Source: a virus
DNA length: 22,364 nucleotides
IMG/VR virus record: IMGVR_UViG_3300017963_000781
Span: 1-22,364 of that record
Direction: 5' to 3' (one strand)
In this document: positions 17,446 to 22,364 of the stretch, one piece after another
Position numbering within the stretch: position 1 is the first letter of the stretch
Layout of the letters: each line of letters starts with the position of its first letter
Notes under the pieces: generated by a model
What the model saw: the letters and a program-made list of their open reading frames with translations, nothing else
What the model was told of the DNA's origin: nothing
Databases searched by the model: none
Position numbers and translations under genes: made by a program

Positions 17446-17581
17446 ATACAGCATTATGATTAAGGCGCACGACTCCATCGAGGTCAGCAATAACGAATTT
17501 GATATAGATGCGATTAAGCGCAAACATCGTATTCCGGCAAACGCCGAATGTGAAATCATTGTGCCCAATAGTGGGAAATAA
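17429..17581 (+). CDS. 50-residue basic protein, function unknown
   Basis: Starts at ATG 17429 inside the end of the previous gene (17-nt overlap) and ends 19 nt before the Sak4-like gene. The sequence is basic (KRRVKYSIMIKAHDS, then DAIKRKHRIPANAE) and probably has a small alpha/beta fold with a closing strand CEIIVPNSGK. It is supported by an intact frame, tight packing and a reasonable composition rather than homology. It could be a partner of the preceding putative regulator. Confidence 0.5.
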   Translation: MKRRVKYSIMIKAHDSIEVSNNEFDIDAIKRKHRIPANAECEIIVPNSGK

Positions 17582-17600
17582 CCATAAACAACAAAAGCAA

Positions 17601-18533
17601 ATGTCAAAAATCGTAAAAGCATCGGAGCCCATCCAGGCCACCGCAATCAAGGTTTTGCTATACGGCGAACCAGGGATTGGAAAAACCACGTTTGCCCTGT
17701 CAGCACCCAGGCCGTTACTGATTGACTGTGACGGAGGTGTTCGCCGGGTAAGTCCTCAGTTTCGCCGGGACTATGTGCCGGTAGCATCCTGGGATGATAT
17801 TATGGAAACCATCGGTTCAAACCTGGACGAATATGACACATTCGTCATAGACACCGTTGGCCGGGCGTTGGACTTCCTTTCCGAAAGCATCATAAAAGGC
17901 AACTACAAGCTGGGAACATCCGGGGGGGGATTGACGCTTCAGGGCTGGGGGGTCCTGGGTAGTCAGTTCAAATGCTTGCTGTCAGCCATGAACGCCTCCG
18001 GGAAGCACCTGATTTTTATTGCTCACCAGAAAGAGGGCGTTGAAGATGAGAAGAGGTACTACCGGCCAGAGATCAGCGGCCAGACCCTGGGGAACATTAT
18101 CCGGGATATGGATCTGGTAGGCTATATGCAGAGCCGGAACAACAAACGAACAATCTCTTTCAATCCGGCGGACACGTTTTACGGGAAGAACGCTTGTGAA
18201 CTACCTCCGGTGATTGAATTGCAGGACCTGAACAAAAAGCCTGGGGAGAAACCGTTAACAGCGATCTTCGAACACTATTACGCCTCCCTGGAAAAACAGG
18301 GTGAGGTAATCCAGGAGTATGAGAAACTTTTGGAGAAGCACAAGAAAGCTATCGGGAAGATCAAAAACGTAGACCAGGCTAATGAAATGATCCCGGTTTT
18401 GAAAGAGGCCCAAGTTATTTGGGACAGCCCAACGATCTTGAAGATCGAACTGTCCAACAAGTGCAAGGAGCTTGGGTTTAAATATGACCGGGAGATGGAA
18501 GCTTATTACGAACCACCTGTAGAGGCTAAGTAA
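17601..18533 (+). CDS. Sak4-like RecA-fold ATPase (phage recombination)
   Basis: A 310-residue protein; the start at ATG 17601 (MSKIVKASEP) is preferred over an upstream extension that overlaps the small gene. It has Walker A GEPGIGKTT (residues 22-30), Walker B TFVIDT with Asp84, and FIAHQKEG as a sensor-like strand. These match the short RecA/AAA_24-like ATPases called Sak4 that promote single-strand annealing or recombination in phages. Residues after about 225 add a helical, charged extension (EYEKLLEKHKKAIGKIK...) beyond the usual Sak4 length. It overlaps the nuclease gene by 1 nt (TAATG), making a nuclease-recombinase pair. Confidence 0.83.
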   Translation: MSKIVKASEPIQATAIKVLLYGEPGIGKTTFALSAPRPLLIDCDGGVRRVSPQFRRDYVPVASWDDIMETIGSNLDEYDTFVIDTVGRALDFLSESIIKGNYKLGTSGGGLTLQGWGVLGSQFKCLLSAMNASGKHLIFIAHQKEGVEDEKRYYRPEISGQTLGNIIRDMDLVGYMQSRNNKRTISFNPADTFYGKNACELPPVIELQDLNKKPGEKPLTAIFEHYYASLEKQGEVIQEYEKLLEKHKKAIGKIKNVDQANEMIPVLKEAQVIWDSPTILKIELSNKCKELGFKYDREMEAYYEPPVEAK

Positions 18534-19246: not shown

Positions 19247-20239
19247 ATGGAACAATGCAAATTATGTAAGGAAGAGGTTGACCAGTTACATGAACACCAT
19301 ATTGTTCCTGGACTGGAAACACCAGACAATAAGATTAGGATTTGTTCGGATTGTCATTTCAAAATACATCACCCGGATAAAGAAGATGCTGATTTATCTA
19401 AAACTAAAGAAGCCTGGGTTAATGCAATGTCCAGGAAAAGAGAAGATATATTTAGAGAAGGATGGGCTATAATACCAAATGTAGTTGTTCGTGATCCAAA
19501 TTTAAGTGATAGTGCAAAAATACTATATGCAGAAATCAGCAGCCTATGTGCATTAAAGGGCTATTGTTATGCATCTAATAAATATTTTGCAGAGAAATTT
19601 AAAGTGAGTCAGCGAACAATTACCAGACATTTAACGGAATTAGAACCATACGTCTTAATGAAAGATAGAGGTGGAGGTGGATCAAGGAGAAAGATGTATG
19701 TTCATTTATTAGGCTCCACTTCGACAAAAATGTCTAAGTACCAGGAAGAGGATGTCCAAGTGAACATAGACAAAAATGTCCAACAGAATAATAATAAGGA
19801 AGAAAAAATTACAAGAGATATTCCTATTGTGGAGAAGGATATTACTATTGTACTGGAATACTTAAACACTGTTACCGGTAAAGACTTCAAACCCACTACC
19901 GAGGCTCACCGGCGAGTGATCCGGGGCAGGATGAAGGAAGGATTTACGGTACAAGATTTCAAGAAAGTAATCGACATCAAACATGCAAAATGGGGAGGGA
20001 AGAAATGGCAACGGGACGGCGAATATGTTTACGGCGATGACTTCCTGAGGCCAAGCACACTGTTTTCACCAACAAAATTTGAAGGATACGTAAATGAACG
20101 AATGCCGGAGAAAGCAGACTCCGGGGAACCTCTAAACATCAAAACCTCTGAAAAATGGCAAAAGCGGAAAACTGGGACAAAACACTTGAACGGGTCCGGG
20201 GAGCAATCCGTGACCGTAGATTCACCAGGCAACCAATAA
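19247..20239 (+). CDS. Replication initiator: HNH-like zinc domain + winged helix + Phg_2220_C-like domain
   Basis: A 330-residue protein with three parts. Residues 1-45 have CKLC (Cys4, Cys7), HEHHIVP (His17, His18), Asn28, CSDCH (Cys33, Cys36) and His41, an apparently complete HNH/zinc pattern. Residues about 72-150 form a winged-helix-like region (YFAEKFKVSQRTITRHLTEL). After a charged, Gln/Asn-rich linker, residues about 200-285 contain VLEYLNTVTGKDF and FLRPSTLFSPTKFEGYVN, typical of the DnaD-like Phg_2220_C domain of phage initiators. It is followed by the helicase loader, as in other phages. Base composition changes abruptly near 19,860. Confidence 0.8.
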   Translation: MEQCKLCKEEVDQLHEHHIVPGLETPDNKIRICSDCHFKIHHPDKEDADLSKTKEAWVNAMSRKREDIFREGWAIIPNVVVRDPNLSDSAKILYAEISSLCALKGYCYASNKYFAEKFKVSQRTITRHLTELEPYVLMKDRGGGGSRRKMYVHLLGSTSTKMSKYQEEDVQVNIDKNVQQNNNKEEKITRDIPIVEKDITIVLEYLNTVTGKDFKPTTEAHRRVIRGRMKEGFTVQDFKKVIDIKHAKWGGKKWQRDGEYVYGDDFLRPSTLFSPTKFEGYVNERMPEKADSGEPLNIKTSEKWQKRKTGTKHLNGSGEQSVTVDSPGNQ

Positions 20240-20817
20240 CGTATGATCATGACGGGATTCTTGAGATAATCCGGGTAATGGGAGATGAATATTCTCCGGA
20301 GCATTTTGACCTAGATCAACATTGTAGACCGATGTATTCCATGTTGGTCCAATGGCTGTACGGGGACGACCGGCTAACCGATATAAGTATTGATAAAGGA
20401 ATTTTAATAATGGGGCCTCCAGGGACCGGCAAGACCCAGGCCATGATACTACTTCGGGAACTTGCAAACATAACAGCCGTGAGTGATATGAAGTTCGCAA
20501 TTAAACCATGTGCGGAGGTAGTTGCGGAGTACCAGGCTGAAGGAATGGATGTGATCAGAAAGGCAAACGCCACACATAGATGTTTTGATGACCTGGGGAG
20601 CGAGCCACAGAACATCAAGTTTTACAATAATGATCTGAATGTAATGCGTGAGGTTATCACGGCCCGGTATCATCTTTGGCTAACTACTGGTCGATTAACT
20701 CACTTAACCACTAATCTAACCCCGGAGGATATTGAAAAATATTACGGTGAGCGTGTTTGGGGCCGCATCCGGGGGATGTGCAATATCTTTGAACTAACCG
20801 AACCAGATCGAAGATGA
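20155..20817 (+). CDS. DnaC-like helicase loader (AAA+ ATPase)
   Basis: A 220-residue protein that starts inside the initiator gene (85-nt overlap, different frame). It shows Walker A GPPGTGKT (residues 87-94), Walker B CFDDLG with Asp145/Asp146, a sensor-like TTNLTPEDIEKYYG segment and a downstream RVWGRIRGM in which Arg can serve as the finger, all in DnaC/IstB order. The N-terminal 80 residues contain a helical and His/Cys-containing part likely to contact the helicase or initiator. It would load the replicative helicase (from host or elsewhere on the phage) at the origin. The partner initiator lies immediately upstream. Confidence 0.85.
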   Translation: MAKAENWDKTLERVRGAIRDRRFTRQPITYDHDGILEIIRVMGDEYSPEHFDLDQHCRPMYSMLVQWLYGDDRLTDISIDKGILIMGPPGTGKTQAMILLRELANITAVSDMKFAIKPCAEVVAEYQAEGMDVIRKANATHRCFDDLGSEPQNIKFYNNDLNVMREVITARYHLWLTTGRLTHLTTNLTPEDIEKYYGERVWGRIRGMCNIFELTEPDRR

Positions 20818-21572: not shown

Positions 21573-21889
21573 TGATTCAAAAGATCAATTCGATTAAGAA
21601 AACGGTTGCAAAGATCCTCATGGAGGAACCGGGTGCTAGGGATAATGACCGGCTGTTAATGTTTAAGGTTTGGGCTGATCAGAATCCAATGATCCGTAAG
21701 CGCAATCCATTTTTGCATGAGTTTGCCAAGGACTTTATCAATGGCGAATATGCTGATCCGGAAAGCATACGCCGCACCCGACAGAAGGTCCAGGAGCAAC
21801 ATCCAGAGCTTCGTGGAAAACATTACAAACAAAAAAAGACAGAAATTGAATCAGAGGTGCGAAAGAAAATAAAAACCTTAGAGACATGA
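21572..21889 (+). CDS. Conserved phage-type basic protein, function unknown
   Basis: A 105-residue, Lys/Arg-rich, fully helical protein. Fragments such as EEPGARDNDRLLMFKVWADQ and ESIRRTRQKVQEQHPELRG match a pattern I recall from many phage genomes (EEPxxRDND...SIxRxRQKxQExxPELRG), where the function is not known. The charge and helical nature suggest DNA or RNA contact. It overlaps both neighbours (1 nt upstream, 4 nt downstream), so it is part of the same translational chain. Confidence 0.75.
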   Translation: MIQKINSIKKTVAKILMEEPGARDNDRLLMFKVWADQNPMIRKRNPFLHEFAKDFINGEYADPESIRRTRQKVQEQHPELRGKHYKQKKTEIESEVRKKIKTLET

Positions 21890-22137
21890 AAACAGCAGAA
21901 GTAATTATTATCGGATTTAGTAACGCCAACAAAGAAGGGGTTACTTTGCATACAAATATACCAGCAAAGTTAAAAACAGGAAACGTAAAAGGAGTGTCAA
22001 TATGGGTATTGTGGGATAAAATTGGCTCCGCCTTGCTCGAAAATTATACAGAAAGATGCGATACTTCAAGCCTTAACGAATTACGTATAACCAATAAGAA
22101 ACAGAGAGATGAAAATAGAAAACGGATATTATGTTGA
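21886..22137 (+). CDS. Small protein, function unknown
   Basis: An 83-residue protein on an ATGA overlap with the previous gene. The first half is beta-like (AEVIIIGFSNANKEGVTL), the middle has KGVSIWVLWDKIGSALLENY, and the end is strongly basic (RITNKKQRDENRKRIL). Base composition is lower in G+C than the genes just to the left. Its last 29 bases overlap the start of the Cys-rich array gene. No homology recognised. Confidence 0.65.
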   Translation: MKTAEVIIIGFSNANKEGVTLHTNIPAKLKTGNVKGVSIWVLWDKIGSALLENYTERCDTSSLNELRITNKKQRDENRKRILC

Positions 22138-22364
22138 TTACAATAACAATCGTTGGAATTGTGATTTCTACACAGAAGAACAGGCACAAAAGAATAGCGA
22201 TTCATTGATTAACTGCTCTAACTGCTCTTACTGCTCTTACTGCTCTGGCTGCTCTGGCTGCTCTAACTGCTCTAACTGCTCTGGCTGCTCTGACTGCTCT
22301 GACTGCTCTTACTGCTCTTACTGCTCTGGCTGCTCTGGCTGCTCTAACTGCTCTAACTGCTCTG
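22109..22364 (+). CDS. Cys-Ser-x tripeptide-array protein (3' end outside window)
   Basis: The frame opens at ATG 22109 and is still open at the window edge, with 85 full codons visible. Residues 1-34 form a header, MKIENGYYVDYNNNRWN then CDFYTEEQAQKNSDSLI, which looks like a small beta hairpin followed by a helix. From residue 35 on, every triplet reads x-Cys-Ser, with x restricted to Asn, Tyr, Gly or Asp. Seventeen full triplets are visible, so a third of the array is cysteine. I see no signal peptide or membrane segment. Possible roles are metal binding, a disulfide or thiol-stacked solenoid, or a host-interaction surface; none is shown by the sequence. It overlaps the previous gene by 29 nt. 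Confidence 0.8.
   Translation, partial: MKIENGYYVDYNNNRWNCDFYTEEQAQKNSDSLINCSNCSYCSYCSGCSGCSNCSNCSGCSDCSDCSYCSYCSGCSGCSNCSNCS
22211..22363 (+). repeat. Tandem 9-bp repeat array, NNC-TGC-TCT, 17 full units
   Basis: Seventeen units of exactly 9 bp without indels. TGCTCT is invariant; the variable triplet is AAC, TAC, GGC or GAC. In order the encoded variable residues are NN YY GG NN G DD YY GG NN. Units 3-11 reappear at units 12-17 and beyond, giving an 81-bp higher-order period. The array runs off the window. Confidence 0.97.

What the first reader, a model, noticed from the sequence alone, without database searches (positions are those of the whole stretch)
22211..22364. Phage gene built of a pure x-Cys-Ser tripeptide array
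After a 34-residue header the protein becomes an uninterrupted series of x-Cys-Ser triplets, x being only Asn, Tyr, Gly or Asp. One third of residues are Cys in a protein with no export signal. This is not collagen-like, pentapeptide-repeat, metallothionein or known antifreeze spacing. A 3-residue period puts Cys in a regular stack, so a thiol-lined solenoid, a metal-binding rod or a redox-dependent scaffold are all conceivable. I have only a vague impression that related Cys-triplet proteins exist in other phages and know no function.
Basis: partly seen in the sequence, partly recalled or inferred. Interest (0 to 1): 0.9.

Follow-up and report, generated by a model that had tools for sequence, protein, structure and literature searches.

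The report
Phage cysteine-triplet rod with swappable ends
The odd gene is real: it belongs to a widespread and essentially undescribed family of phage proteins in which a Cys-x-x triplet array takes the place that known rod-shaped beta-helix repeats occupy in sister proteins carrying the same end domains, so it probably forms a new kind of rod with a core made of cysteines.

Summary
In detail: window 22109-22363 encodes a 34-residue header and 17 perfect x-Cys-Ser triplets, open at the contig edge. A 99.99%-identical sister contig breaks in the same array, and its other end carries the last 41 residues and stop of a tail domain, so the gene is complete in the phage. It belongs to an unnamed family (phrog_15341) found in about 130 other contigs, isolated Campylobacter and Flavobacterium phages, and some bacterial genomes. 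In 171 arrays only 18 of 4819 Cys positions are not Cys, although Cys codons vary synonymously (rough omega 0.02): strong protein-level selection on Cys.

The decisive clue is a module swap. A tail profile built only from Cys-array proteins finds the same tail fused to YdcK/hexapeptide beta-solenoids and to pentapeptide-repeat beta-helices; a second tail type occurs on Cys arrays and on pentapeptide repeats. The array therefore fills a slot otherwise held by known beta-solenoids. Best reading: a cytosolic, length-variable solenoid rod with a Cys core between cap and tail, expressed with early DNA-replication/recombination genes. AlphaFold did not resolve the array (pLDDT 25-45), so fold, thiol state and any metal remain inferred. 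A radical-SAM partner was tested and is not general.

The parts
22109..22210 (+). N-terminal header / cap, 34 residues, predicted beta-beta-beta-alpha
   Evidence: Matches phrog_15341 at 2.6e-14 on its own; conserved in type A and type B members; AF2 pLDDT 74-88 for the L003 header.
22211..22363 (+). x-Cys-Ser triplet array, 17 triplets, truncated by the contig end
   Evidence: the array breaks the assembly here and in the sister contig.
21886..22137 (+). Small upstream ORF of unknown function whose 3' end overlaps the header start (possible translational coupling)
   Evidence: no Pfam or PHROG match.
20155..20817 (+). DnaC-like helicase loader (early-region context)
   Evidence: phrog_50, 2.8e-17.
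19247..20239 (+). Replication initiation protein (early-region context)
   Evidence: phrog_428, 1.6e-48; Pfam Phg_2220_C, 4e-23.
17508..18533 (+). Sak4-like ssDNA annealing protein (early-region context; the mechanical ORF may start too early)
   Evidence: phrog_124, 3.5e-52.

Best explanation
The gene encodes a cytosolic early phage protein of three modules: a ~34-residue cap, a rod made of C-x-[D/N/G/Y/R] triplets, and a C-terminal tail domain (type A, 'IGSRNxQT...CGCFxG...F...Y'). The triplet array is most likely a beta-solenoid in which the residue before each Cys makes the turn, each Cys points into a narrow core, and Ser or variable residues face out. It fills the slot that hexapeptide (YdcK-like) or pentapeptide beta-helices fill in sister proteins with the same tail. 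It acts as a length-variable scaffold holding cap and tail and offering a repetitive surface to a partner in early phage DNA metabolism. Shown: gene, modular architecture, tail sharing with beta-solenoids, near-absolute Cys conservation at protein level, early-region location. Inferred: solenoid fold, inward Cys, turn role of the pre-Cys residue, scaffold role. Unknown: the partner, and whether the thiols are free, metal-bound or oxidised.
For: Tail A profile built only from 18 xCx proteins hits YdcK/hexapeptide proteins (5e-17 to 3e-7) and pentapeptide proteins (Listeria LWP01 1.9e-14, EBPR siphovirus 6e-11); tail B profile from 55 xCS tails hits two pentapeptide proteins (1e-36, 3e-32). Solenoid identity by Pfam: PF18836 2.9e-15 and 1.8e-14; PF00805 2.3e-31, 4.5e-57, 3.9e-6. 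35 of 37 records scanned with tail B carry exactly one such gene: Cys array in the phage contigs, pentapeptides in the Bordetella plasmid. Cys: 18 of 4819 register positions changed against 212 minority synonymous Cys codons. Ser is coded by both TCN and AGY, so selection is on protein. Pre-Cys residues are turn formers D, G, N in most subfamilies. Context: Sak4, replication initiator, DnaC loader in the window; 29 of 69 tail-B loci have a recombination-type gene within the fetched flank.
Against: AlphaFold2 gave the array pLDDT 25-45, so no structural support; Foldseek found nothing significant. No i,i+k periodicity of the x residue and no quantised array length for 2-6 triplets per turn, although a rigid rod with fixed cap-tail phasing might show one. 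Known solenoid cores tolerate several hydrophobic residues; near-exclusive Cys suggests chemistry beyond packing. The swap might only mean 'any spacer'.
Confidence: 0.5

Rival explanations
1. Metal- or cluster-binding rod: the CxxCxxC array folds around Zn, Cu(I), Cd or Fe-S clusters and its function is metal sequestration or delivery, metallothionein-like. This may combine with the solenoid reading (metal threaded along the core).
For: One residue in three is Cys; CxxC spacing is that of zinc and iron-sulphur ligands (general knowledge); Cys is conserved at 99.6% while neighbours vary; no apo-fold is predicted.
Against: The slot is held by non-metal beta-solenoids in sister proteins with the same tails; the neighbour survey showed replication and recombination genes rather than metal or Fe-S genes among the recurrent clusters; no metallothionein family match.
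Confidence: 0.25
2. Disordered thiol-rich spacer or redox buffer: the array does not fold; it only tethers cap and tail or consumes oxidants.
For: Very low AF2 confidence in the array; lengths from 6 to 64 triplets with no quantisation; Ser/Gly/Asp/Asn-rich.
Against: Strict period 3 and Cys conservation across very diverged arrays, such as Campylobacter phages where the other two positions are almost free, are not expected of a mere spacer; the alternatives in the same slot are folded solenoids.
Confidence: 0.13
3. Substrate for post-translational modification (radical-SAM thioether or lanthionine-type), with Cys and Ser as reactive residues.
For: In Campylobacter phages WX1, IBB_35 and CJLB-12 the array gene lies three genes upstream of a radical SAM gene; weak sub-threshold similarity to the HxsA4 His-Xaa-Ser repeat protein.
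Against: Those phages carry 11 radical SAM matches each anyway, and of 35 other array-bearing viral contigs only one has a match above the Radical_SAM cut-off. HxsA4 scores are 17-25 bits against a cut-off of 55. Arrays are much longer than known precursor peptides.
Confidence: 0.05
4. Spurious repeat expansion: a wrong reading frame or non-functional DNA repeat.
For: Pure 9-bp DNA repeat; several frames and strands of such arrays stay open, and GenBank calls a wrong frame in Flavobacterium phage FL-1.
Against: Conserved header and tail in the same frame, purifying selection on Cys, and independent Cys arrays with different codons in distant phages.
Confidence: 0.02

Closest known systems
phrog_15341 (PHROGs v4, unknown function)
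   Same: Same header and Cys-triplet array; the window protein matches at 3e-21. The Campylobacter Firehammervirus proteins, such as CP21_166 (6.5e-117), fit it best.
   Different: PHROG gives no function. The Campylobacter members have far more varied +1/+2 residues and lack tails A and B.
Pentapeptide-repeat proteins (PF00805; Rfr beta-helix)
   Same: Fill the same slot before tail A (EBPR siphovirus 1, Listeria phage LWP01) and tail B (Bordetella plasmid pA, locus L196); D/N-rich short-period repeats.
   Different: Period 5 with a Leu/Phe-Ala core; Pfam finds no pentapeptide repeats in the Cys-array proteins.
YdcK beta-solenoid / hexapeptide repeats (PF18836, PF00132)
   Same: Carry tail A in Bacteroides BF766P1, Chryseobacterium MA9V-1/2, Paenibacillus Pd_22F, Fusobacterium phiKSUM, Acidovorax AP1 and Bacillota genomes.
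   Different: Period 6 with Ala/Val/Ile core; different N-terminal domain.
Tenebrio molitor antifreeze protein (PDB 1EZG)
   Same: Its inward residues recur every 3 positions in a 12-residue coil with Cys in the core (general knowledge); best PDB sequence match for tail-B protein L028 (E 0.009) and second best for L003 (E 0.076).
   Different: Secreted and disulphide-bonded with fixed TCTxSxxCxxAx repeats; the match is largely compositional (bias 39.6 bits); the phage protein is cytosolic.
His-Xaa-Ser repeat protein HxsA4 (NF038313)
   Same: Period-3 repeat ending in Ser.
   Different: His instead of Cys, radical-SAM-associated, score far below cut-off.

Membership tests
phrog_15341 | Header and Cys-triplet array match the profile | tested here: met
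   Whole 3.1e-21, header alone 2.6e-14.
Cys-array / tail-A protein family described here | Tail A domain follows the array | tested here: met
   Not in the window itself; the last 41 residues are found at the other end of the same-phage contig G001. The stretch between array break and those 41 residues is missing.
Pentapeptide repeat (PF00805) | A(D/N)LXX repeats, profile match | tested here: not met
   No Pfam hit up to E = 1 in the window protein, L003, L009 or L028.
YdcK/hexapeptide beta-solenoid (PF18836, PF00132) | Six-residue repeat, profile match | tested here: not met
   No hit in array proteins.
Beta-solenoid (fold class) | Superhelical beta coils | tested here: inconclusive
   AF2 array pLDDT 25-45; support is indirect through tail sharing.
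Tenebrio-type antifreeze protein | 12-residue TCTxSxxCxxAx repeat, secreted, disulphide-bonded | tested here: not met
   Only weak compositional match; no such repeat.
Metallothionein | Thiolate metal clusters, curated family match | tested here: inconclusive
   No family match; metal binding is not testable with these tools.
HxsA4 His-Xaa-Ser / radical-SAM substrate | Score above family cut-off and radical SAM partner | tested here: not met
   17.4 bits against 55; no radical SAM match in sister contig G001.

The most novel reading that the evidence does not exclude
A previously unrecognised protein architecture: a triplet-period solenoid whose core is an unbroken ladder of cysteines, possibly threaded with metal ions or iron-sulphur clusters in the reducing cytosol, used by phages as an alternative to pentapeptide and hexapeptide beta-helices.
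Probability: 0.2. Interest if true: 0.9.

Novelty: new variant of a known kind. Interest (0 to 1): 0.62.

Why it matters
If right, phages have three interchangeable repeat rods on the same end domains, one of them a Cys-core repeat with no Pfam or NCBIfam model and no experimental structure. That gives a direct route to a new solenoid type and to the shared function of a large group of unannotated early phage proteins: the tails and the slot can be studied through the pentapeptide or hexapeptide versions, which are easier to model, and the answer transferred. It also explains why many phage assemblies break at these genes.

Tried and rejected
AlphaFold2 on type A and type B alignments: header and tail moderately confident, array not. 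Foldseek against PDB for both models: nothing significant. PDB sequence search with the tail A profile: only weak galactosyltransferase hits. PADLOC: no defence match. Lag analysis and array length modulo 2-6: no coil size. Radical-SAM partner: rejected as general. DNA-mimic idea: net charge per triplet averages only -0.15, range -0.86 to +0.25, so not consistently acidic. Literature: no description of these arrays found in the held library; text search of the CP220 genome paper PMC2853527 and the IBB_35 paper PMC3322345 finds no mention of cysteine. tblastn undercounts relatives because the low-complexity filter masks the array. Chromosomal survey: tails A and B are rare in bacterial genomes (2 of 399, 1 of 396; 7 of 392 matched, three of them weak and without repeats), fitting mobile-element origin.

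Full report
What is in the window. ORF 22109-22363 (+) begins with a 34-residue header followed by 17 perfect x-Cys-Ser triplets, x being N, Y, G or D, and runs off the contig end. The window is an entire IMG/VR contig. The gene follows a Sak4-like annealing protein, a replication initiator and a DnaC-like loader, so it lies with early DNA-metabolism genes of a tailed phage (portal protein also present).

What lies beyond the edge. A second contig of the same phage (G001, 39,495 bp; 99.99% identity over 19,973 bp) also ends inside this array. At its opposite end, in matching orientation, it carries the final 41 codons of a domain that matches the end of the closest complete relative (L003), then a stop, an unassigned ORF, a gene that reads like an HNH nuclease and one that reads like a single-strand binding protein (the last two are my reading of the translation). 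The genome is circular or circularly permuted and the assembly broke in the repeat. Other contigs show the same, for example L020/L047 and L040/L048 with array pieces at both ends. The missing part of array and tail cannot be read from these records.

The family. The header alone matches phrog_15341. Scans of IMG/VR gave 135 array-bearing loci, a few of them sharing contigs; isolated Campylobacter Firehammervirus phages (17 records), Flavobacterium phage FL-1 and some bacterial genomes also carry it. Members share header + C-x-x array + tail. Tail types: A (IGSRNxQT...CGCFxG), B (WHTCxTTHCRAGWVVHLAGEAG), C (LTxEEY, mostly with a different header) and D (short, in clusters). A second header (FLREDK...NGVS...NEGCWNC) also occurs with tail B.

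Selection. In 171 distinct arrays and 4819 in-register positions, 18 are not Cys (11 Ser, 4 Leu, 2 Phe, 1 Tyr), while 212 Cys codons are the minority synonymous form within their array. With a simple mutation model (transition twice transversion) that is an omega near 0.02; it is rough because repeats within an array are not independent. Ser at +1 is coded by both TCN and AGY. The pressure is on the protein. In the most diverged arrays (Campylobacter) the other two positions are almost free, with D/N still favoured before Cys.

The module swap. A tail A profile made only from 18 Cys-array proteins finds, at E between 5e-17 and 3e-7 (nominal database of 100,000), proteins whose central part is a YdcK/hexapeptide beta-solenoid (Bacteroides BF766P1, Chryseobacterium MA9V-1 and -2, Paenibacillus Pd_22F, Fusobacterium phiKSUM, Acidovorax AP1, L007, L202, L208) or pentapeptide repeats (Listeria LWP01, EBPR siphovirus 1); a tail B profile from 55 Cys-array tails finds two pentapeptide proteins (L186 Bordetella plasmid, L196). 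Pfam confirms PF18836 in BF766P1 and L007 and PF00805 in the Bordetella, EBPR and Listeria proteins. Pd_22F has no Pfam hit at 0.001 and is called hexapeptide-like from its sequence only. In a scan of 37 records with tail B, 35 had exactly one tail-B gene. The Cys array is thus a third occupant of a slot otherwise filled by beta-solenoids. This is the main reason to read it as a solenoid and scaffold.

What the structure tools say. AF2 with 12-13 sequences modelled cap and tail at moderate confidence but not the array, and fold searches were empty. No coil size could be inferred from residue periodicity or array lengths. The solenoid is therefore an inference from architecture, not a demonstrated fold.

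Mechanism. Most likely a rod of variable length with Cys in the core, joining cap and tail and acting early in infection near replication or recombination proteins. 29 of 69 tail-B loci have YqaJ, ERF, RecT-like, Sak4-like or PDDEXK genes within the fetched flank, and 7 of 21 tail-A loci a SNF2-type helicase; no background rate was computed, so this is context, not an enrichment test. Whether the thiols are free, oxidised or metal-bound is open; near-exclusive Cys makes a chemical role plausible.

Alternatives. Metal-cluster rod: plausible and partly compatible. Disordered thiol spacer: possible, but does not explain strict Cys in diverged arrays. Radical SAM substrate: suggested by Campylobacter synteny but not general. 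Spurious expansion: excluded by conserved cap, tail and selection.

Novelty. Proteins of this type are in public databases as hypothetical proteins and as an unnamed PHROG; no Pfam or NCBIfam model fits, and no description was found in the papers available. The unnamed family is therefore known as sequence; the tail-sharing with two classes of beta-solenoid, the Cys selection measurement and the recovered tail of the window's own gene are the new points.

Noticed in passing
L051:3497-4201 (Flavobacterium phage FL-1, KY421186.2): GenBank annotates a wrong frame through the Cys array (APZ82901.1, APVAPIAPV-type) and splits off the tail (APZ82918.1); the Cys-array frame runs from 3497 and is broken by an apparent frameshift in tail B.
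   Followed up: partly
L021, L022, L024 (contigs G020, G1264, G022): Phage contigs carrying 13-15 profile matches to different short Cys-array genes, many in tandem, each with its own array and a shared C-terminal motif (IRQEYNINDRRLEIEL type).
   Followed up: partly
array codons across the family: The codon before each Cys codon almost never ends in a purine: Gly GGY 1098 against GGR 38, Arg CGY 674 against 37 purine-ending, whereas Ser codons at the next position end freely in G or A. A purine there would create ATG or GTG over the Cys codon; shared descent may also explain it.
   Followed up: partly
L007:220-720 and L007:812-1507: A YdcK-type beta-solenoid gene with tail A lies directly upstream of a Cys-array gene with tail B in the same phage.
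   Followed up: partly
L189, L190, L175 (Campylobacter phages WX1, IBB_35, CJLB-12): The Cys-array gene is followed by a phosphoesterase gene, a small gene and a radical SAM gene in conserved order.
   Followed up: yes
L049:3001-3168: In Campylobacter phage CJLB-12 one array copy is cut short by TAA while the DNA after it still reads as Cys triplets, so arrays can decay.
   Followed up: no
L057:6021-6861: A Gemmatales protein with a Cys-triplet stretch and a C-terminal part that looks like PEGA domains; it shares no recognised header or tail with this family and is probably unrelated.
   Followed up: no
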